NCBI GenBank assembly: GCA_903838415.1
Contig: CAILYI010000198.1
Span: forward strand, 1 to 64,000
Direction: 5' to 3'
Origin: an uncultured Anaerolineae bacterium
Lineage (GTDB): Bacteria > Chloroflexota > Anaerolineae > Anaerolineales > Villigracilaceae
Length of the DNA stretch: 64,000 nt
The notes under the pieces are model-generated. The model ran no database searches and was not told the origin of the DNA. It saw only the letters and a program-made list of their open reading frames with translations. This document shows, piece by piece, positions 31,211 to 45,205 of this stretch (position 1 is its first letter; every line of letters begins with the position of its first letter). The translations under genes and the position numbers were made by a program.

Positions 31211-32869
31211 CTATTTTTCTCGTGCCTTGACCAGCCAGCCGCGCGCAAATGCCAGGGCTTCTTCACGCGTGGACAATTTCCCGGCGGCCTGGGTTTCGCG
31301 GATGGCTTCGAGGAGTCTTCCGATTTCTGGGCCGGGTTTCTGCTTGAGTTCATTGATCAAATCGTCACCGTTGACAAGCGCTATAGGGTGAATAATTTCG
31401 TCCGCTTTTTCGTACCAGGCTTCCAGCAAGCTGCGACAAACGTCGAGCGTGGCGACCCATTTATCCTGAGTCAAGGCATGGTCGTAGGTGGCGCGCGTAT
31501 CCGCCAGGGCCAGCAAAATCAAGTCAATCCCTGATTCCCCACAATCGCGGAAAAAGCGATACATGGCCTTACGACTGATCTCCAGTCCGGCTTCCTTGCG
31601 GCTGGAATGGGCATGTACGCGCATATGCTGGCGAATAATGAGTTTCAGGCGATTAAGCTCGTCATTGCTCAGGTGCAGCGCCATCCCGCGTTTGAGGGCG
31701 GTTTCTGCACCCTGTTCATCATGCCCCAAAAAGCGGATTCTGCCGCTTTCTTCTTCAATCGACCGGGTTTGGGGTTTGTTGACATCGTGATAGAGCGCCG
31801 CTAAAAACAATACAGCGCGCGCCGAACGATCAGTATTCAAGGCCGAAGCGAGATGCTCGCCGATTTGCTGACGATAACGCCCCAGCCGCAGAACGAGCAA
31901 ACCGTTCATCAAATCGGAATTGGCCTTATCTTCATCGTATGCAGGCGCTAAAACGCTTAGAATGCCTTCCAGGTGGCGCAGAACAGCCAGTGTATGCGTC
32001 CAGACCTCATGCACATGCGGCGCAGACTGTTCCACACCTTTTAGAGCTGTCAGCTCGGGCAGGAAGTAAGGAAAAGCGCCCAGCAACTCCAAAGCGCGGA
32101 TGGAGGCGTCGGGTTTTGGGCCCGCCAGGATTTTGAATAACTCGTCTCGCTGTCGTTCCGGGGAAACATTTGCCAGCAGCGGCACAGCCGCTTTCATCAG
32201 TTTGCGGGTTTCGGGATCAATCGAGAAATCGAGCGCCGCTGCCTGTCGCACCGCCCGCAAAATGCGGATGGGGTCATCGCGCAATGATGTCGCGGAACAG
32301 GCGCGAATGCGTTTCTCGCGGATGTCTTTCACGCCGCCCAAAGGATCAATAATTGCGCCGGTGTGGAGGTCCATCGCGACGGCGTTGATGGTGAAATCAC
32401 GTCCACATAAGTCGGCTTCCAGAGATTCGCCGCGATAACCGGCAAAATCGAGCATGTCACGCGAGCCATCGGGGTGGATGACAACGACTCGGGCAGTATC
32501 AAAGCTCGCATCCAACGGAAAAAAGGCCGCGGGCAGCGTATCCGCCACTTTTTTGGCCAACTTCAAACCCTGGGATGTGGCAAAATCCAGGTCGTGAGTC
32601 ACTCGTCCAAGCACGGCATCCCGTACTGCGCCACCCACCAGGTAAACGGAAACATCTTCCGGCAGCAAGACGCGCACTGAATCTAATAAGGGGGAACTGA
32701 CAGGCATGGCAGACATAAAACGGATTTCCGGTTGTTCTTTACGGCGCGCAAGGTGCGCGGCTTGAAAAGCTTGCTCACGAGTTTCGCCTTGGGCGACGAT
32801 TTTCCCACGCACGAGAGCCACCCAGCGCCCGGCATAAGCTGATGCTTCAGGGTTTTGGTGTTCGGCCAT
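31211..32869 (-). CDS. cca: CCA-adding tRNA nucleotidyltransferase with N-terminal DUF5678-like domain
   Basis: 552 residues. Adds or repairs the 3'-CCA of tRNA, or is a poly(A)-polymerase-type relative. Residues ~10-50 (YAGRWVALVRGKIVAQGETREQAF) look like a DUF5678 mini-domain. The class II nucleotidyltransferase head follows, with LVGGAVRD and the metal-binding DLDF, then RDFTINAVAM and the RNA-binding helices (DDPIRILRAVR). A C-terminal HD domain (HDVNKPQTR...) could give phosphohydrolase activity. The start is kept because it lies 5 bp after the hpt stop, although internal ATGs at codons 52 and 55 would skip the N-terminal domain. Confidence 0.92.
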   Translation of the reverse strand: MAEHQNPEASAYAGRWVALVRGKIVAQGETREQAFQAAHLARRKEQPEIRFMSAMPVSSPLLDSVRVLLPEDVSVYLVGGAVRDAVLGRVTHDLDFATSQGLKLAKKVADTLPAAFFPLDASFDTARVVVIHPDGSRDMLDFAGYRGESLEADLCGRDFTINAVAMDLHTGAIIDPLGGVKDIREKRIRACSATSLRDDPIRILRAVRQAAALDFSIDPETRKLMKAAVPLLANVSPERQRDELFKILAGPKPDASIRALELLGAFPYFLPELTALKGVEQSAPHVHEVWTHTLAVLRHLEGILSVLAPAYDEDKANSDLMNGLLVLRLGRYRQQIGEHLASALNTDRSARAVLFLAALYHDVNKPQTRSIEEESGRIRFLGHDEQGAETALKRGMALHLSNDELNRLKLIIRQHMRVHAHSSRKEAGLEISRKAMYRFFRDCGESGIDLILLALADTRATYDHALTQDKWVATLDVCRSLLEAWYEKADEIIHPIALVNGDDLINELKQKPGPEIGRLLEAIRETQAAGKLSTREEALAFARGWLVKAREK

Positions 32870-37106: not shown

Positions 37107-38024
37107 TTGAAAACAAAAATCTGGGTCGCGCTGCTGGCCGTCTACCTTGTTTGGGGTTCCACTTATCTGGGCATTCGCTTTGCCATCGAAACCATTCCGC
37201 CCTTTTTGCAGGCTGCGATCCGCTTCCTGATTTCCGGCACATTCTTGTTTGCCTGGCGGAGAATGGCTGGCGACCCGGTGCCGACTCGCGGTCAGTGGAG
37301 ATCGGCAATCATCGTTGGCGGGCTGCTGCTGGTCGGTGGAAACGGCCTGATTTCCCTATCCGAAACCAAAATCCCAAGCGGAGTTGCCGCCCTGCTGGTC
37401 GCCACCATCCCGATGTTCATGGTGCTGGTGGAAGCGCTGCGGCCCGGCGGCGTCCGCCCAACGCTGGGACAGGTTGTGGGGTTATTAATCGGCTTCAGCG
37501 GCGTGATCGTGTTGATCGGTCCGGCTGAATTTGGCGGAGTGCGGGAGTTCAGCCTGATCAGCGGCGGCATTGCGCTCTTTGCGGCATTTTTGTGGTCACT
37601 TGGCTCCATTTACAACCGCAATGCCGACCTGCCAAAGTCAACCCTGCTCTTTACCGGCATGGAAATGTTGATGGGAAGTATCGGCCTGTTTATTGTCAGC
37701 GGGCTCAAAGGCGAAATCTCGCAATTCCAGATTGCCGCCGTTTCGACCCGGTCTTTATTGGGTTTGCTATATCTGATTACCTTTGGTTCACTGATCGGGT
37801 TTACTTCCTATGCCTGGCTGCTGCGAAATGCCCCCGTTTCGCTGGTTTCAACGTACGCATACGTCAACCCAATCGTGGCGGTGCTGCTTGGCAATTTGTT
37901 TGCGCAAGAAAAACTCAGCCCACGCATTCTGCTTGCGGCGCTAATTATTGTCGGATCTGTGGTTCTGGTAAATTTGGCCAAAAAGCCTGGGCCACTTTCC
38001 ATTGAACCGGAGGAAGTTGTGTAG
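37107..38024 (+). CDS. EamA/DMT-superfamily transporter (YedA-like)
   Basis: 305 residues, ten membrane helices in two EamA repeats. VYLVWGSTYLGIRFAIETIPPFLQ in the first helix pair and the second-repeat segment LRNAPVSLVSTYAYVNPIVAVLLGN are typical of the YedA branch, exporters of amino acids or other metabolites. The start is a TTG at 37107 with AAAGGA 6 bp upstream. The earlier in-frame GTG at 36840 lies inside the AraC-MGMT gene and gives an implausible N terminus. Cotranscription with the alkylation-repair gene is likely. Confidence 0.87.
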   Translation: MKTKIWVALLAVYLVWGSTYLGIRFAIETIPPFLQAAIRFLISGTFLFAWRRMAGDPVPTRGQWRSAIIVGGLLLVGGNGLISLSETKIPSGVAALLVATIPMFMVLVEALRPGGVRPTLGQVVGLLIGFSGVIVLIGPAEFGGVREFSLISGGIALFAAFLWSLGSIYNRNADLPKSTLLFTGMEMLMGSIGLFIVSGLKGEISQFQIAAVSTRSLLGLLYLITFGSLIGFTSYAWLLRNAPVSLVSTYAYVNPIVAVLLGNLFAQEKLSPRILLAALIIVGSVVLVNLAKKPGPLSIEPEEVV

Positions 38025-38040
38025 CAAAAAAAAACGCACA

Positions 38041-38076
38041 AAAAAACTGCCGAGGGAAATCCCCCGGCAGTTTTTT
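38041..38076. terminator. Bidirectional intrinsic terminator
   Basis: Stem 38041-38056 with 38061-38076, one A-C mismatch, GAAA-like loop, A/T tails on both strands. It separates the convergent transporter and glnA genes. Confidence 0.92.
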
Positions 38077-38106
38077 ATTCTCGCTCCTCCCAGAAAGAGA
38101 AATGGA

Positions 38107-39519
38107 TTAGCAATCGAAATAGAGTGTGAATTCGTATGGTGTCGGGCGGATGCGGACCGGGTCGAGTTCAACCTGGCGTTTGTATCCGATATAAGCTTCG
38201 AGCAGATCGGTCGTAAAGACATCGCCCTTGAGCAGGAATTCGTGATCGGCTTCGAGCGCTTCGAGCACCGCGCCCAAAGAACCGGGCACCTGCTTGATCA
38301 GCTTGGCTTCTTCGGCGGGCAGTTCGTACAAATCCTTATCCTGAGGATCACCCGGGTCGATACGATTCTGAACACCATCGAGACCCGCCATCAGGATGGC
38401 TGCAAAACACAGGTACGGATTGCTGGAAGCATCCGGGGCGCGGAATTCAACGCGCTTGGCCTTGGTGCTTTTGGTGACCGGAATGCGGCAGATGGCCGAG
38501 CGATTGCGCTGGGAATACGCAAGGTTGACAGGTGCTTCAAAGCCGGGAACCAGGCGGCGGAAAGAGTTGGTGGTGGGCGAAGTCAGCGCCAACAAAGCCG
38601 GGGCGTGCTTGAGCAAACCGCCGATGTAATACCGGGCCGTGTCGGACAAACCGGCATAACCTGCGGCATCATAAAAGACGTTGGTATCGCCCTTCCACAA
38701 AGACTGGTGGACGTGCATACCGGAACCGTTATCCCCAAAGAGCGGCTTGGGCATGAAGGTAACGGTCTTGCCGTTCTTGCGGGCGACATTCTTCGCGATA
38801 TATTTATAAAGCAGCAGGTTATCTGCCATGCGGGTCAGGGTGGTGAAGCGCATCCCCAATTCGGTCTGACCAGCGGTGGCCACTTCGTGGTGATGGATTT
38901 CCATCGGCACACCGGCATCCTGCAGGGTTAGCATGATCTGGCTGCGGACAAGCTGCAGCGTATCCGTGGGGGGCACGGGGAAATAACCTCGCTTGGGGGA
39001 AATCTGTCCGCCAAAGTTCTGACGATCGCCGCGGCCGCTGTTCCACCAACCTTCGTCACTGTCGATGTGATAATAGGATTCGTGCGTCCCGCTGGAATAG
39101 CGGACGTTATCAAAGATAAAGAATTCGGCCTCAGGCCCTACAAAAACCGTATCAGCGATGCCGGTTTGCTTGAGATAGGCTTCAGCCTTACGCGCCACAT
39201 AACGCGGATCGCGGCTGTAGGGCTGCAGGGTGATCGGATCAGCCACATCACAGGTAATCACCAGGGTCGGGATATCCGCTACCGGATCGATGAAAGCGGT
39301 CTCGGGATCGGGCAGCAGCAGCATGTCCGATTCGTGAATTTCCTGGAAGCCACGAATGGATGAACCATCAAACGGGATGCCTTCGGTGAAAAGTTCCTCA
39401 TCCAAACGGCGCACCGGGATCGTGAAATGCTGCCAGGTACCGGGCAAATCGGTAAAACGAATATCCACCATTTTGACATCTTTGGCGAATTTGAGAACAT
39501 CTTGAACAGTTTGAGCCAT
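38107..39519 (-). CDS. glnA: Glutamine synthetase type I
   Basis: 470 residues. Makes glutamine from glutamate, ammonia and ATP. GSI signatures are present: [17 protein letters not shown], the metal/substrate loop [13 protein letters not shown], and [12 protein letters not shown]. The residue matching the adenylylated tyrosine is present as Tyr398 in DLYELPAEE, and the gene is divergent from glnE, so it should be controlled by reversible adenylylation. The ATG at 39519 has AAGGAG 8 bp upstream. The promoter has an inverted repeat touching the -35 box. Confidence 0.97.
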
Positions 39520-39570
39520 AAGGTAAACTCCTTTTGGGAACATAAACGGATTTTTGTATTAACAGCGCAG

Positions 39571-39599
39571 ATTATAGATTTGGGGTTGGATGAAGTCTA
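39571..39599 (-). promoter_or_regulatory. Promoter of glnA
   Basis: On the minus strand TAGACT (39599-39594), 17 bp, TATAAT (39576-39571). Transcription would begin about 50 bp before the ATG. Confidence 0.7.
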
Positions 39600-39616
39600 G
39601 TACCCAAACGGGTACT
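39599..39616 (-). promoter_or_regulatory. Candidate operator next to the glnA -35 box
   Basis: AGTACCC (39599-39605) and GGGTACT (39610-39616) are perfect inverted repeats with a 4-bp centre. The repeat abuts and overlaps the -35 hexamer by one base, a position suited to a dimeric regulator. Confidence 0.55.
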
Positions 39617-39630
39617 TTCTAGTTTAGAGG

Positions 39631-39664
39631 TCATAGATCAGATGTCATAGGTTGTAGATCATAG
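39631..39664. repeat. Three TCATAG iterons at 14-bp spacing
   Basis: TCATAG occurs at 39631, 39645 and 39659, each start exactly 14 bp from the last, inside degenerate 14-bp units between glnA and glnE. It may be a regulator binding array or a degenerate tandem repeat. Confidence 0.6.
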
Positions 39665-39714
39665 GTGGACAGGGCTTTCGTCTGGGATCATCCCATCTGA
39701 TTTCCGTTAAGCCT

Positions 39715-39720
39715 TATAAT
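39715..39720 (+). promoter_or_regulatory. -10 box of glnE, leaderless arrangement
   Basis: A consensus TATAAT ends 7 bp before the glnE ATG at 39728, with no Shine-Dalgarno sequence. There is no good -35 hexamer, so an activator may be needed; the iteron array lies 50-85 bp upstream. Confidence 0.6.
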
Positions 39721-39727
39721 CGCCGCC

Positions 39728-42700
39728 ATGGATTCTTCCTTTCCTTCCAGCCAATTTCTTGACGGCGAGCTGACCGAATCTGCCGCGCAAGCGCTACTCA
39801 CTTCGCTCGGTTTCAGTGATTGGCAGGCGGCGCTGCGTCACCTGCAGCACATCGCCACGCGTGACCTTACGGCGCGTCCGGCGCTGGAAGCCATTTTGCC
39901 CTACCTGCTCATCACGCTTTCCAACTGCGCCGACCCGGATCAGGCGTTGGTAAACCTAGAACGCTTTATCAGCGGCGAACGGGCCGGGGAGATCATCCAA
40001 AAGCTACAGAATTATCCGCGCGCACTCGAGATTCTTGCGACCATCTTCGCTGGCAGCCAGTTCCTGACGGAGATTCTGCTGCGCGATGCCAGTCACCTGG
40101 ATGTGCTGACCAACCGTGAACTGCTCGCCCGTCAGAAGAGCGCGGAAGAATTTCACCGCGAAGCGGCGCAGGTGCTGGAAAATCCCATCCCGACTGAACA
40201 GCTCAACGCGCTGCGCCGCTATCAACGCGGGGAACTGCTACGCATTGGCGCCAGCGACCTGCTCAGCTTATATGACCTGCCCGCCGTCACCAGCCAGCTT
40301 TCGAACCTGGCCGATGGCATGGCGCGCACCTGTCTCAGCTACGCCAGCGAGCGCAGCGGCATCAGCCCGAAGGGTTTCGTGGTGCTTGGCATGGGCAAGC
40401 TGGGTGGCGGCGAACTCAACTACAGTTCAGATATTGACCTGCTGTTCATCTCCAGCGAAAACGGCGCGCCATATCTGCGCCTCGGTCAGCATTTCATCGA
40501 CGCGCTCGCCAGTATGACCGCCGAAGGCTTTCTCTATCGCGTGGATATGCGCCTGCGCCCGTGGGGACGTGATGGCACGCTGGTCAGTACCATCAGCGGC
40601 TATTTGGGCTATCTGAACAAAAACGCGCGCCTGTGGGAGAAACAAGCCCTGCTCAAGGCGCGTCCCATCGCGGGCGACTTCGCCCTCGGCGAGGACTTTC
40701 TGAAACAGGTTGAACCGTTCATTTACGGCGAAAACCCCGAAACCCTGCGCGCCAGTGTGCATGCCATGAAGCAGCGCACCGAGGAAATGCTGCGCGCCAA
40801 AGGCCGCGAATGGGGCGAAGTCAAACTCGGCGAAGGCTCCATCCGTGACGTGGAATTTGTGACCCAGTACCTGCAACTCGCACACGGCGCCGCCAACCCC
40901 AAACTCCGTAAAAAATCGACCTTGCAGGCGCTCAGGCGGCTGGTCAAATTTCAACACATCACCATCCATGAAGCGCGCGTGCTGACCGACGGCTACATCT
41001 TTCAGCGCACCGTCGAACACTTCCTACAGATGATGCACTATCGCCAGACCTACACCCTGCCCTCCGACCCGGCCGCCATTCACCTGCTCGCCCGTCGACT
41101 TGGCTTCGAAACCCGCGAACAATTCCTGGAACGCTATCAACAGCACAGCCTGGCCATCCGCGCGGTTTATTCCAAATATATCGGGGGGATTGAAACGACT
41201 CAAACGCCCGAGCCGGAATCGCCCGCAACGGCCGAATCCACCCGCCAGCACCTGGCCCACATGGACGCTTCTTACGCCGCAGCCTTTTCCGCCGTTGAAA
41301 TTGAGCGTCACGCCACCCTGGCCGAACAACTCAACGACGAACAGCTCGTGCACGTCGACGCCATCCCCGGCGATAACGGGCGCTGGCAAGTCAGCGTGAT
41401 CGCCTATGATTACCTGGGCGAACTCTCGCTGATTTGCGGGCTGATGTTTGTCTACGGCCTGGACATCCAATCTGGGGAGGTTTTTACCTACGAAACGGTG
41501 GAAAAACCGGCGGCTGAGTCAGCATCCGCTCCGAGGGGCCGCAGCGGCACCAGAAAATGGATTCCGCCCAAAACGTCCGATCCATCCGAATCCACTCTGA
41601 GCCGCCGCAAAATTGTGGATGTTTTCACCGTTCAACCGCTAGGCGCCGACCCGAATTGGGCGAAATACGCTGATGATTTGCACGCGCTGCTGAAAATGCT
41701 GCACGACGGGCAGCGACGCCAGGCGCGCAGTGAACTGGCCAAGCGCGTCGGCGCGGTTTTTGCCGAAATGGACAGCGCCGAGAAACCGCTTTATCCGATC
41801 GAAATCTCAATTGACAATGACTTATCGAAACGCTACACATCCCTGCACATCGAAACCGCCGACACGGTCGGGTTTTTGTATGAGTTTACCAACGCGCTCT
41901 CGCTGACTCATACCTACATTGCACGCATGGTGGTGCAGTCGCGCGGTCAGCGCGTCGATGACCTGCTGTACGTGACCGATGAAGCGGGCAAAAAGATCAC
42001 TTCGCCCAAAAAACAGCGCGAACTGCGCACCGCCGCGGTTTTGATCAAGCATTTCACGCATTTACTGCCGCGCTCCCCTAACCCGGCCTCGGCGCTACTG
42101 CATTTCCGCGAATTCCTGGCGCAGCTCTTCGAGCGCCCCAACTGGCCCGACGAACTGGCTTCGCTCGAAAACCCCGAAGTAATGGATAATCTGGCCCGCC
42201 TGTTGGGCGTCAGTGACTTTTTGTGGGACGATTTCATGCGCATGCAATACGCCAACCTGTTTCCGGTGGTGAGCGCCGCTGGGGCGCTGGCCACGGCCAA
42301 AAGCCGCGCAGATCTGCAAGACGAACTGGCAGCCGCATTGACCATGGCGCAAACCGATCAGCAAATTCCACGTATTGCGCTGAATAATTTCAAAGACCGT
42401 GAAATGTTCCGCATCGATATGCGCCACTTGCTCGGGCACACCAAGGAATTCTGGGATTTCTCGGAAGAACTGACCGACCTGACCGAAGTGATCGTCAACA
42501 ATGCATATCAACTGACTGACGAGGATTTGCGCCCCACTCACGGCATGCCACGGCTTGCGGACGGTTCCATCGCGCACATGACGGTGCTCGCTTTGGGGAA
42601 ATGCGGCGGGCGCGAATTGGGCTTTGCCTCAGATATTGAGTTGATGTTCGTCTATGCCGGGGAAGGCCAAACTGACGGCCCGGAGCCGCTGGCGAATTCC

Positions 42701-43423
42701 GTCTTTTTCGAAAAAGTGGTGCAAAACTTCCTGAACGCCATCCACGCCCGGCAGGAGGGAATTTTTCAGGTCGATTTACAACTGCGTCCTTACGGAAAAG
42801 CCGGGAGCATGGCAGTATCGCTCGATTCTTTCAAACGCTATTACGCGCCGGAAGGTCCCGCCTGGGCCTACGAACGACAGGCGCTGGTCAAACTCCGTCC
42901 AATCGCCGGAGATAAAAATCTCGGCGAACAGCTCTGCGCCTTGCGCGACGAATTCGTCTACAACGGCGCGCCCTTCGACGTCACCTCCATGCGCGCCATG
43001 CGCGAGCGGCAGGTGCGGCACCTGGTCAGCGCCGGGAAGTTCAACGCCAAATACAGTCCCGGCGGCCTGGTGGATATTGAGTATTTAATTCAGGGAATCC
43101 AAATCACACACGGTGCAACAAATCCAGCCCTGCGGCTGACGAATATCCGTCAGGCTATGGCAGCCTTAAACAAAGCCGGCATCATAAACGACGAGGATTA
43201 CACCAAGCTGCACAAAGCACAAACCTTTTTGCGTTGGCTGATCGATGCCATGCGGGTTGTGCGGGGCAACTCCAAAGATGTCACGGTGCCGGCGTATGGC
43301 AGCGAGGAATTCGCGTTTTTGGCCCGAAGACTGATGTATGGCAACAACGTCCAGCGCCTGCGCGAGGATTTGCTCCGCTACCAGGCGGATGTCGTGGAGA
43401 TGAATCGGCGTTTGCTGAGTTAA
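39728..43423 (+). CDS. glnE: GlnE glutamine-synthetase adenylyl transferase with inserted GlnD-type ACT pair
   Basis: 1231 residues versus about 950 in E. coli. Bifunctional GlnE attaches and removes AMP on glutamine synthetase. The N-terminal transferase half (deadenylylase in E. coli) has GMGKLGGGELNYSSDIDLLF, with Asp235 and Asp237. The C-terminal half (adenylylase) has LGKCGGRELGFASDIE, with Asp969 and Glu971. Between them, about residues 525-770, is extra sequence that looks like two ACT domains: YDYLGELSLICGLMFVYGLDI and, more clearly, HIETADTVGFLYEFTNALSL...VDDLLYVTDEAGKKI, the pattern seen at the C terminus of GlnD. This suggests direct glutamine sensing. The frame is intact across the insertion. 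Confidence 0.93.
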   Translation: MDSSFPSSQFLDGELTESAAQALLTSLGFSDWQAALRHLQHIATRDLTARPALEAILPYLLITLSNCADPDQALVNLERFISGERAGEIIQKLQNYPRALEILATIFAGSQFLTEILLRDASHLDVLTNRELLARQKSAEEFHREAAQVLENPIPTEQLNALRRYQRGELLRIGASDLLSLYDLPAVTSQLSNLADGMARTCLSYASERSGISPKGFVVLGMGKLGGGELNYSSDIDLLFISSENGAPYLRLGQHFIDALASMTAEGFLYRVDMRLRPWGRDGTLVSTISGYLGYLNKNARLWEKQALLKARPIAGDFALGEDFLKQVEPFIYGENPETLRASVHAMKQRTEEMLRAKGREWGEVKLGEGSIRDVEFVTQYLQLAHGAANPKLRKKSTLQALRRLVKFQHITIHEARVLTDGYIFQRTVEHFLQMMHYRQTYTLPSDPAAIHLLARRLGFETREQFLERYQQHSLAIRAVYSKYIGGIETTQTPEPESPATAESTRQHLAHMDASYAAAFSAVEIERHATLAEQLNDEQLVHVDAIPGDNGRWQVSVIAYDYLGELSLICGLMFVYGLDIQSGEVFTYETVEKPAAESASAPRGRSGTRKWIPPKTSDPSESTLSRRKIVDVFTVQPLGADPNWAKYADDLHALLKMLHDGQRRQARSELAKRVGAVFAEMDSAEKPLYPIEISIDNDLSKRYTSLHIETADTVGFLYEFTNALSLTHTYIARMVVQSRGQRVDDLLYVTDEAGKKITSPKKQRELRTAAVLIKHFTHLLPRSPNPASALLHFREFLAQLFERPNWPDELASLENPEVMDNLARLLGVSDFLWDDFMRMQYANLFPVVSAAGALATAKSRADLQDELAAALTMAQTDQQIPRIALNNFKDREMFRIDMRHLLGHTKEFWDFSEELTDLTEVIVNNAYQLTDEDLRPTHGMPRLADGSIAHMTVLALGKCGGRELGFASDIELMFVYAGEGQTDGPEPLANSVFFEKVVQNFLNAIHARQEGIFQVDLQLRPYGKAGSMAVSLDSFKRYYAPEGPAWAYERQALVKLRPIAGDKNLGEQLCALRDEFVYNGAPFDVTSMRAMRERQVRHLVSAGKFNAKYSPGGLVDIEYLIQGIQITHGATNPALRLTNIRQAMAALNKAGIINDEDYTKLHKAQTFLRWLIDAMRVVRGNSKDVTVPAYGSEEFAFLARRLMYGNNVQRLREDLLRYQADVVEMNRRLLS

Positions 43424-43514
43424 TGCGTACTATTTGAATCGAAAGTAACCACAGATAAACGCGGATGAACTTTGAGAGACTCTCTTCGGAGGAAATTATC
43501 CGCGCAGGCGGTTC

Positions 43515-44222
43515 TTAAAACGCAAAGGGATTGAAATCCGTGCCCCGATCGTAGTAATCTTCGTGCTCAGCCTTTTTGAGAAAATTCACAAGCAGATACG
43601 TCACGGGAGTCATCAGCGCCTCGATGACGGTCTTAAACAGGTAATTGGTCAACGCCAGGGTGACGAACAAACTCCACGGGAAAACGCCAAACAGCGAGGC
43701 AACCAACACAAAAAGCATCGAATCGACCAACTCTCCCACCAGGGTACTGCCAATCGTCCGCATCCACAGGTATCGGCCTTCGGTCAGGATTTTCAGCTTG
43801 GCGAGCACAAACGAGTTGGAAAATTCCCCACCCCAGAATCCAGCCAGCGAACCCAGCACAATCCCTCCGCTGGACATGCCACCGAGAATGGCGGCGTAAG
43901 CGGCATCCCCGGCATAAGTTTGCCAGGTAGCTTCTCCCGGCAGGATGCTGATCAACCAGAAAACGGACGAAGCCAACACTAGACAGAAAAAACCTGTCCA
44001 AATCACCCGGCGCGAACGTTTGTACCCGTAAACTTCGGTCAAGATGTCGCCGAAAATATAAGAAATTGGAAAAAGGATGGTCCCGCCATCAAAAGCCAGC
44101 GGGACGCCGAAAAAATTCAATCTCAGGTCAATAATCTTTGCCGAAGAAGCTACATTGCTCACCACCAACACAGTCACAAAGACTGCCATGATGATGTCAA
44201 AAAAGCGAAATTGTCGATCCAT
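43515..44222 (-). CDS. yhhQ: Queuosine-precursor transporter, YhhQ family
   Basis: 235 residues, about six membrane helices. Family features: SNVASSAKIIDL, FPISYIFGDILTEVYGYKRSRRVIW, FGGEFSNSFVLAKLK-like helix, and TIGSTLVGELVDS. Family members import queuosine precursors such as preQ0/preQ1. The ATG at 44222 is chosen because the following residues match family N termini, though AGGAG is 13 bp away; longer in-frame starts run into the ttuA 3' region. No queuosine genes adjoin, but a tRNA-thiolation gene lies next door. Confidence 0.87.
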   Translation of the reverse strand: MDRQFRFFDIIMAVFVTVLVVSNVASSAKIIDLRLNFFGVPLAFDGGTILFPISYIFGDILTEVYGYKRSRRVIWTGFFCLVLASSVFWLISILPGEATWQTYAGDAAYAAILGGMSSGGIVLGSLAGFWGGEFSNSFVLAKLKILTEGRYLWMRTIGSTLVGELVDSMLFVLVASLFGVFPWSLFVTLALTNYLFKTVIEALMTPVTYLLVNFLKKAEHEDYYDRGTDFNPFAF

Positions 44223-44278
44223 GGTCGTTGAAGAACTCCTTTTGTTTTGATCAGGCGGGAACTGCGACCGCCGTATTT

Positions 44279-45205
44279 CTATGGTTTGACCTTTTCCACC
44301 ATCCTGCAAAATGAACACTTGCCCTCATACATGGTTGGCTGCCCACAGGTGGGACAGTTAAACAGCGGCGGGATCACTTTTACGACATCATCAGCAAAGA
44401 AACCCTTCTCACGCGCGTCGAGGAAGTTGAGATAGAAAGTCAGTTTCGCGCCAGGACGTTCGTTTTCAAGCTGATTGAGCAGTTCTTTATAGTAAATGGA
44501 TGTTGATCCAACCGAAAACGGGCATTCATCATAAATATATTCAATTCCGCGCAGCATGGCATAAGCGGTCATTTCTTTTTCATAAAAACGGCAGAGTGGT
44601 TTGACTTTGCGCGCCAATCCGTCATGTTCGGGGAGCACCGGTTTTTGCCGCAACAGATATTCCCGTGACCAATTCAGTGTATTCCCAAACAAGACCGCGG
44701 CCTCGTCATCGAGATTGTGCCCGGTTGCCAGGACGTCATAGCCAAGGTCATGCGCAATTCGGTTCATTTCGTGGCGCTTGGTCACGCCGCAAACCGAACA
44801 GGGACGTCCCTGCCCACGAAGCGTCAGCGCTGCCAATTCTGGAATGCTTTGACCATATTCCTTTTGGATATCGACCACGTGGAGTTTGAGTCCGCGCTCA
44901 GAGGCGAATTTCTCGGTCAACCGGTGCGACTCGTCCGAATAGCCGATGCCCCCATCAATGCCCAGACCGATGTACATGCCATCAGCGTTGTATCCCAATC
45001 GCTGCAGGATATCCCACAAGGAAAGGGAATCCTTGCCGCCGGAAACCGCTACCAGGATTTTTTCATCCGGGCCAAACATCCAGTATTTTTTGATAAAGCG
45101 GGCCGTCTGCTGGGGAATCCATTCCAGATAATGTTCCTTGCACAACGCCAGTTTGTGCTGAGTCATATTGACAACAGCTTTTTCGCCGCAGGTTTTACAT
45201 TTCAT
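44279..45205 (-). CDS. ttuA: TtuA-type tRNA 2-thiolation enzyme
   Basis: 308 residues. N-terminal zinc ribbon (Cys3, Cys6, with Cys22 and His25), PP-loop SGGKDS at 55-60, the Fe-S cysteines Cys136, Cys139 (CSVC) and Cys228, and a C-terminal zinc ribbon (CPTC...CSFC). This matches the TtuA/TIGR00269 group, which thiolates tRNA, in Thermus at U54. Its start overlaps the stop of a ThiS/MoaD-like sulfur-carrier gene by 4 bases, as expected for a TtuA-TtuB pair. In Thermus 2-thio-U54 stabilises tRNA at high temperature; whether that holds here is unknown. Confidence 0.9.
   Translation of the reverse strand: MKCKTCGEKAVVNMTQHKLALCKEHYLEWIPQQTARFIKKYWMFGPDEKILVAVSGGKDSLSLWDILQRLGYNADGMYIGLGIDGGIGYSDESHRLTEKFASERGLKLHVVDIQKEYGQSIPELAALTLRGQGRPCSVCGVTKRHEMNRIAHDLGYDVLATGHNLDDEAAVLFGNTLNWSREYLLRQKPVLPEHDGLARKVKPLCRFYEKEMTAYAMLRGIEYIYDECPFSVGSTSIYYKELLNQLENERPGAKLTFYLNFLDAREKGFFADDVVKVIPPLFNCPTCGQPTMYEGKCSFCRMVEKVKP

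What the first reader, a model, noticed from the sequence alone, without database searches (positions are those of the whole stretch)
41295..42010. GlnE with a GlnD-like ACT pair built into its centre
Seen: glnE encodes 1231 residues with both nucleotidyltransferase motifs intact (Asp235/Asp237 and Asp969/Glu971). Between them, at about residues 525-770, is a segment matching the ACT-domain pattern at the C terminus of GlnD (clear second copy: HIETADTVGFLYEFTNAL, then DDLLYVTDEAGKKI). Known: in enterobacteria glutamine is sensed mainly by the GlnD ACT domains and relayed by PII to GlnE. Inference: this GlnE could sense glutamine itself, bypassing PII/GlnD. The target tyrosine of the divergent glnA is present (Tyr398).
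Basis: partly seen in the sequence, partly recalled or inferred. Interest (0 to 1): 0.8.

Follow-up and report, generated by a model that had tools for sequence, protein, structure and literature searches.

The report
Glutamine-sensor pair built into GlnE
The enzyme that switches glutamine synthetase off and on in this Chloroflexota bacterium carries, in its middle, the same pair of amino-acid-sensing domains that a separate sensor protein (GlnD) normally provides, and no such separate sensor was found in its genome, so the enzyme may read the cell's nitrogen state by itself.

Summary
Confirmed. The 1231-aa GlnE (39728-43423, +) has both nucleotidyltransferase halves and, between them (about residues 515-785), a pair of ACT domains homologous and collinear with GlnD's C-terminal ACT pair (HHalign 99.6%; AlphaFold pLDDT 89). 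E. coli GlnE lacks it. No GlnD and no PII over cut-off were found in the genome. All 11 assessable GlnE in 400 Chloroflexota genomes carry the pair, against 11 of 58 GlnE-bearing genomes in a Planctomycetota sample. Of 48 distinct GlnE-ACT Chloroflexota genomes none shows GlnD; 8 have a strong PII, and all 8 lack the tyrosine GlnD would modify. ACT-bearing adenylyltransferases form one clade (100/100) with D-x-E, not D-x-D, in the active site. In that tree its first branches are 'half GlnEs': ACT pair plus adenylyltransferase, no deadenylylase; a coarser tree did not show this. Best reading: a glutamine sensor wired in cis to glutamine synthetase adenylylation. Ligand and direction of control are untested. 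My paper searches listed no description.

The parts
39728..43423 (+). glnE with built-in ACT pair, 1231 aa, stop included
40031..41188 (+). N-terminal half (deadenylylase, AR), residues about 102-487
   Evidence: PF03710 102-326 and PF08335 346-483; matches 1v4a, annotated as E. coli GlnE N-terminal domain
40430..40438 (+). AR metal-binding motif Asp235-Ile-Asp237
   Evidence: SDID string in 39 of 39 ACT-bearing AR halves examined
41270..41347 (+). helical lead-in to ACT1 (residues 515-540), alignable with GlnD
41348..41707 (+). ACT1 (residues about 541-660); loop residues about 592-622 low-confidence in the model
   Evidence: Asp561 in 89 of 89 and Gly564 in 86 of 89 inserts
41801..42076 (+). 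ACT2 (residues about 692-783), includes DTVGFLYEF and the VTD strand
   Evidence: PF24931 693-767; Asp712, Phe716, Leu717 in 89 of 89, Gly715 in 87 of 89 inserts
42140..43420 (+). R helices and C-terminal adenylyltransferase (AT) half, residues 805-1231
   Evidence: second PF03710 match 42188-42931; model matches 3k7d
42632..42640 (+). AT metal-binding motif Asp969-Ile-Glu971 (D-x-E, clade signature)
   Evidence: at the aligned site SDxE in 47 of 47 ACT-bearing and SDxD in 18 of 18 ACT-less proteins; SDxE in 72 of 72 A4 rows
38107..39543 (-). glnA, type I glutamine synthetase, divergent neighbour and presumed substrate
   Evidence: TIGR00653 E 1.7e-196
38326..38328 (-). codon of the target tyrosine (KDLYELP), Tyr406 of the long ORF = Tyr398 from the inner ATG
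   Evidence: Tyr in 42 of 42 neighbouring glnA rows that cover the site, some of them the same contig twice
39544..39727 (.). intergenic region between glnA and glnE; TATAAT at 39715-39720, shortly before the glnE ATG; no Rfam family at gathering score

Best explanation
This is a lineage-specific form of GlnE in which a GlnD-type tandem ACT module sits between the deadenylylase (AR) and adenylyltransferase (AT) halves. Shown: the module's homology, predicted fold and conservation; no GlnD and no PII over cut-off in this genome; the ACT pair found with the AT half even where AR is missing. Inferred: the pair binds glutamine (or a closely related amino acid) and switches the enzyme in cis, glutamine favouring AMP transfer to Tyr398 of GlnA (off) and low glutamine favouring removal (on). 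The job done in E. coli by GlnD plus PII would then be done inside one protein.
For: GlnD-collinear ACT pair with ACT fold. Loop Asp and Gly of both ACTs nearly invariant in 89 inserts. No GlnD and no PII over cut-off in the own genome (its best PII hit is a cyclic-di-AMP receptor, PF06153 77.9 bits). Of 48 distinct GlnE-ACT Chloroflexota genomes 0 have a GlnD match above 78 bits (cut-off 519) and 40 lack a PII above 40 bits; the 8 strong PIIs all lack the T-loop tyrosine. glnA found in the flank of 36 of 80 collection loci, with the target Tyr kept wherever covered. ACT pair and AT occur together without AR in 6 genomes. GlnD's ACT domains are regarded as its glutamine sensors (PMC3173338, passages seen).
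Against: No ligand or activity data. No solved GlnD ACT pair turned up to compare binding residues (top 50). Seven of the 10 GlnE-ACT genomes under other phylum names have a full GlnD and 9 of 10 a strong PII; in the Planctomycetota sample 8 of 11 GlnE-ACT genomes show a second, weaker ACT match in another frame of 908-954 aa, as expected of GlnD (confirmed with the GlnD model for G496 only). So ACT-GlnE also coexists with the PII cascade. The D-x-E AT motif could mean altered catalysis. E. coli GlnE is recalled to respond to glutamine without any ACT domain, so the pair is not required for that in principle.
Confidence: 0.65

Rival explanations
1. The ACT pair senses another metabolite (glutamate, 2-oxoglutarate, another amino acid) and tunes GlnE to that instead of glutamine.
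For: ACT domains of different enzymes bind different amino acids (recalled); Foldseek partners include the isoleucine-bound threonine dehydratase domain 9d2r. Ligand residues cannot be read from sequence here.
Against: The module is homologous specifically to GlnD's pair, including the preceding helix, and the neighbouring gene's enzyme makes glutamine.
Confidence: 0.2
2. The ACT pair is only a structural spacer or dimerisation element between AR and AT and carries no signal.
For: Its internal loop (residues about 592-622) is variable and low-confidence; many ACT-like domains dimerise (recalled).
Against: Loop Asp/Gly residues nearly invariant over 89 inserts; the pair is kept in 6 proteins that have no AR half to be spaced from.
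Confidence: 0.12
3. The protein modifies a target other than glutamine synthetase.
For: Distinct AT motif D-x-E and a long stem branch of the clade.
Against: Divergent glnA neighbour with conserved tyrosine; AT half folds like E. coli AT.
Confidence: 0.06

Closest known systems
GlnE of E. coli (bifunctional GS adenylyltransferase / deadenylylase)
   Same: AR and AT halves, order, target motif in GlnA, domain folds (1v4a, 3k7d)
   Different: E. coli has no ACT pair at the AR-AT junction and has D-x-D in AT, and is switched by PII and PII-UMP (PMC12409994, passages seen)
GlnD (PII uridylyltransferase / uridylyl-removing enzyme)
   Same: Tandem C-terminal ACT pair, collinear and homologous
   Different: No HD hydrolase domain matched in this protein; the nucleotidyltransferase halves are GlnE-type; no GlnD or PII over cut-off in the genome
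Plant ACR proteins (ACT domain repeats, ACR9/ACR11)
   Same: ACR11's ACT domains are reported most similar to GlnD's (PMC3173338, passages seen); the second ACT of the window protein matches the ACR9 Pfam family
   Different: Described in the passages seen as ACT-repeat proteins; no nucleotidyltransferase (recalled)
GlnE without ACT in Planctomycetota, Actinomycetota and Proteobacteria
   Same: AR and AT halves
   Different: No ACT pair, D-x-D in AT, other side of the AT tree at 100/100

Membership tests
GlnE (GS adenylyltransferase) | two PF03710 nucleotidyltransferase domains, each followed by PF08335 | tested here: met
   two stretches each; two PF03710 places in G000
GlnE (GS adenylyltransferase) | acidic pairs in both active sites | tested here: met
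   SDID in AR; SDIE in AT, i.e. Glu in place of the second Asp of the 18 ACT-less GlnE compared
GlnE (GS adenylyltransferase) | a GlnA partner with the adenylylation tyrosine | tested here: met
   divergent glnA with KDLYELP
GlnE (GS adenylyltransferase) | an NCBIfam GlnE equivalog model over its cut-off | tested here: not met
   PRK14109 527.3 of 625, PRK11072 479.3 of 487, PRK14108 435.9 of 724 bits. The Pfam GlnE domain is far over its cut-off (327.8 of 24 bits), so I file it as a variant of GlnE, not as a standard one
GlnE (GS adenylyltransferase) | AMP transfer to and removal from GS | not testable with these tools
   needs biochemistry
GlnD | C-terminal tandem ACT pair | tested here: met
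GlnD | HD hydrolase domain and TIGR01693 over cut-off | tested here: not met
   no HD family in the protein; 84.9 of 519.4 bits
ACT domain | curated ACT family over its cut-off | tested here: met
   PF24931 28.8 of 27 bits; PF01842 matches 65 of 89 aligned inserts at E 0.01 but not the window's own
ACT domain | beta-alpha-beta-beta-alpha fold | tested here: met
   AlphaFold pLDDT 89.1; Foldseek partners such as 9c7n, TMt up to 0.79, though at weak E-values
ACT domain | amino acid binding | not testable with these tools
   needs binding assays

The most novel reading that the evidence does not exclude
The ACT pair and the adenylyltransferase form a self-contained one-protein circuit, glutamine in, GS-AMP out, that works without GlnD and PII and that first existed without any deadenylylase: the 'half GlnE' (ACT-ACT-AT) proteins branch first in the clade, so the bifunctional AR-ACT-ACT-AT enzyme of this window may have been built by adding a deadenylylase to an already glutamine-controlled writer.
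Probability: 0.3. Interest if true: 0.85.

Novelty: new variant of a known kind. Interest (0 to 1): 0.68.

Why it matters
Control of glutamine synthetase by adenylylation is a textbook cascade in which glutamine is read by GlnD, passed to PII and then to GlnE. In Chloroflexota the GlnE I could assess has the sensor built in, in genomes without a detectable GlnD and mostly without PII, or with a PII that lacks the modified tyrosine. That offers a compact natural enzyme for asking how glutamine alone can set the direction of adenylylation, and a route to a structure of a GlnD-type ACT pair. The half-GlnE proteins raise the question of how an organism manages GS adenylylation with no recognisable eraser.

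Tried and rejected
Hidden GlnD in the genome: rejected. The GlnD-profile hits at window 31595-32314 (-) belong to a CCA-adding-enzyme-like protein (PolyA_pol and HD). Hidden PII: rejected; the best hit is a cyclic-di-AMP receptor. PDB sequence searches with the insert gave nothing useful. Rfam found no family at gathering score in 37500-44500.

Failed or weak steps of mine: one search lost the AT half of 17 of 18 GlnE without ACT; one search used the same C-terminal piece as 'AR' for 10 of 13 of them. I draw nothing from either. Searches (all 18 GlnE without ACT; 33 of 47 ACT-bearing, 14 dropped on purpose to thin the tree; 15 without ACT, 15 full ACT, 6 AR-less, chosen by hand) replace them. 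The bootstrap had not settled. In one search one AT row (Nonomuraea) falls on the AR side. The earlier tree (72 ACT rows, three distant outgroups, quick method) put the AR-less rows L224 and L225 on long branches among full-length rows, against the early branching seen. The order of events (AR lost at least twice, or added once) is not decided. The 15 Planctomycetota GlnE without ACT were picked from genomes whose GlnE the ACT model had not found, so their lack of ACT is by selection. One of the 47 genomes counted as without ACT (G664) has only a 513-aa GlnE frame. Alignment A3 left out L049 of 90 prepared rows, and A4 left out 11 of 83.

Full report
Observation. The ORF 39728-43423 (+) encodes 1231 aa. 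Pfam finds GlnE and GlnD_UR_UTase in two stretches each and an ACT family at 693-767. NCBIfam's GlnD model TIGR01693 aligns positions 616-843 of 850, the ACT pair, to residues 501-768. The N-terminal half matches the solved domain 1v4a of E. coli GlnE (E 2.5e-45); the model of the ACT plus C-terminal part matches the solved AT domain 3k7d (E 1.3e-18).

The insert. In 19 proteins (window included) from the same genus, family or order the segment is conserved (18 of them aligned as A1). Profile-profile comparison of 89 such inserts with ten GlnD or GlnD-like proteins gives 99.6% probability, E 3e-24, collinear over the lead-in helix, ACT1 and ACT2. Single-sequence Pfam scans of the 89 inserts: 86 match PF24931, 65 match PF01842. 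AlphaFold gives two ACT-type units at pLDDT 89.1, pTM 0.85. Foldseek against the PDB is weak by E-value (one match at 0.001 or better); its partners with probability near 1 are a large mycobacterial glutamate dehydrogenase (recalled to hold ACT-like domains), the threonine dehydratase regulatory domain and the GL3 ACT-like domain, and low-probability unrelated folds such as homing endonucleases are mixed in. Loop residues: Asp561 and Asp712 are invariant in 89 of 89, Gly564 in 86 and Gly715 in 87. Aligned with E. coli GlnE, the segment lies between the AR half (E. coli about 438) and the R/AT helices (about 505); E. coli, Nonomuraea and Tistrella have no counterpart there.

Genome context. The window's genome is 99% complete, 8.6% contaminated, 311 contigs; its same-genus relatives are the same contigs as records named Anaerolineae (Chloroflexota), so I place it there. 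It has no GlnD over cut-off and no PII over cut-off. Its best PII hit is a cyclic-di-AMP receptor (PF06153). glnA is divergent from glnE and keeps the target tyrosine.

Distribution. Of 101 genomes (own plus 100 relatives) 22 match this protein at E 1e-5. In 400 Chloroflexota genomes PF03710 matches 13: 8 full-length with the ACT pair, 3 AR-less with the ACT pair, one 75-aa fragment near a contig end, and one 813-aa desaturase-like protein with a weak match. So all 11 assessable GlnE have the pair. A scan of the species collection for two short conserved patterns confirmed 204 loci, of which the best 80 were kept; 70 bear Chloroflexota names and 10 other phylum names. Some of those 10 may be mis-binned: L106 and L084 sit among Chloroflexota in the tree. 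In 149 Planctomycetota genomes 58 have GlnE and 11 of these have the ACT form.

GlnD and PII. GlnD over cut-off: 0 of 48 and 7 of 10; two more of the 10 have a divergent or partial GlnD-like match (381 and 207 bits); none of the 48 has a match above 78 bits. PII above 60 bits: 8 of 48 and 9 of 10. Of the other 40 many have matches of 17-40 bits, some over the curated cut-off of 25; those whose sequences I printed are short PII-like proteins that by eye lack a PII T-loop, and one was checked as a cyclic-di-AMP receptor. T-loop tyrosine (position 51 recalled from E. coli PII), read in the best PII of each genome: absent in 8 of 8 Chloroflexota PIIs, present in 7 of 9 others, the same 7 genomes that have a full GlnD. 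For comparison, 140 of 400 Chloroflexota genomes have a PII match at E 1e-5, so PII is not rare in the phylum. Many of these genomes are draft assemblies, so single absences carry little weight; the pattern does.

Clade and half enzymes. In a tree of AT halves, 33 ACT-bearing and 18 ACT-less proteins separate at 100/100, although 15 of the 18 come from the Planctomycetota sample that also holds the ACT form. At the aligned site the second catalytic acid is Glu in 47 of 47 ACT-bearing proteins and Asp in 18 of 18 others. Six proteins have the ACT pair directly followed by AT with no AR half and a single PF03710 match in their genomes: three Chloroflexota and three Planctomycetota. They form the first two branches inside the ACT clade (100/98 and 94/59; 100/98 and 98/83); full-length enzymes form one later clade (100/96, 100/99). 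One search, with distant outgroups only and a quick search, did not show this early branching. Either AR was lost at least twice, or AR was joined to an older ACT-AT protein. In either case ACT stays with AT, which argues that the pair controls the writer.

Mechanism. Established knowledge: GlnE's AT adenylylates and AR deadenylylates GS, with a central regulatory domain and PII or PII-UMP deciding direction (PMC12409994, passages seen); GlnD is considered the glutamine sensor, probably through its ACT pair (PMC3173338, passages seen). Inference: the ACT pair here takes over glutamine sensing in cis. Not shown: ligand, direction, dependence on PII.

Literature. Searches for GlnE with 'ACT domain' (0 papers; with two more terms: 0), with Chloroflexi (0), with Planctomycet (2 listed, neither title on this subject), and adenylyltransferase with 'ACT domain' (only the Arabidopsis ACR11 paper) gave no paper describing this architecture. 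Broader searches were seen as listings only (one search listed 30 of 40 papers and one search listed 15 of 46). Passages seen in three further papers do not mention it. The library holds open-licence papers only, and domain databases may list the architecture without comment.

Verdict.

Noticed in passing
L224:2680-5274, L225:2984-5629, L226:4129-6168, L284:1715-4120, L285:914-4186, L286:1615-5064: AR-less 'half GlnE' proteins (ACT pair plus adenylyltransferase only) in three Chloroflexota and three Planctomycetota genomes; L225 (E 8.5e-5) and, weakly, L285 (E 0.01) also carry at the C terminus a piece resembling the N-terminal helices of full GlnE.
   Followed up: partly
L149-L151, L153-L156, L158: Eight Chloroflexota PII proteins in GlnE-ACT genomes lack the T-loop tyrosine (Gly or Trp instead), matching the absence of GlnD.
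   Followed up: partly
window 42632-42640: D-x-E instead of D-x-D in the adenylyltransferase active site marks the ACT-bearing clade (47 of 47 against 0 of 18).
   Followed up: yes
window 39715-39730: TATAAT lies shortly before the glnE ATG, which would suit a leaderless transcript.
   Followed up: no
L227:1042-3480: An 813-aa protein with a desaturase-like N-terminal part (judged by eye) and a weak GlnE-domain match (30 bits) in its C-terminal part; possible odd fusion.
   Followed up: no
L017:1501-1761: Own genome encodes a small cyclic-di-AMP receptor (PF06153) that is its best PII-like hit; similar-looking proteins give weak PII scores in some relatives.
   Followed up: partly
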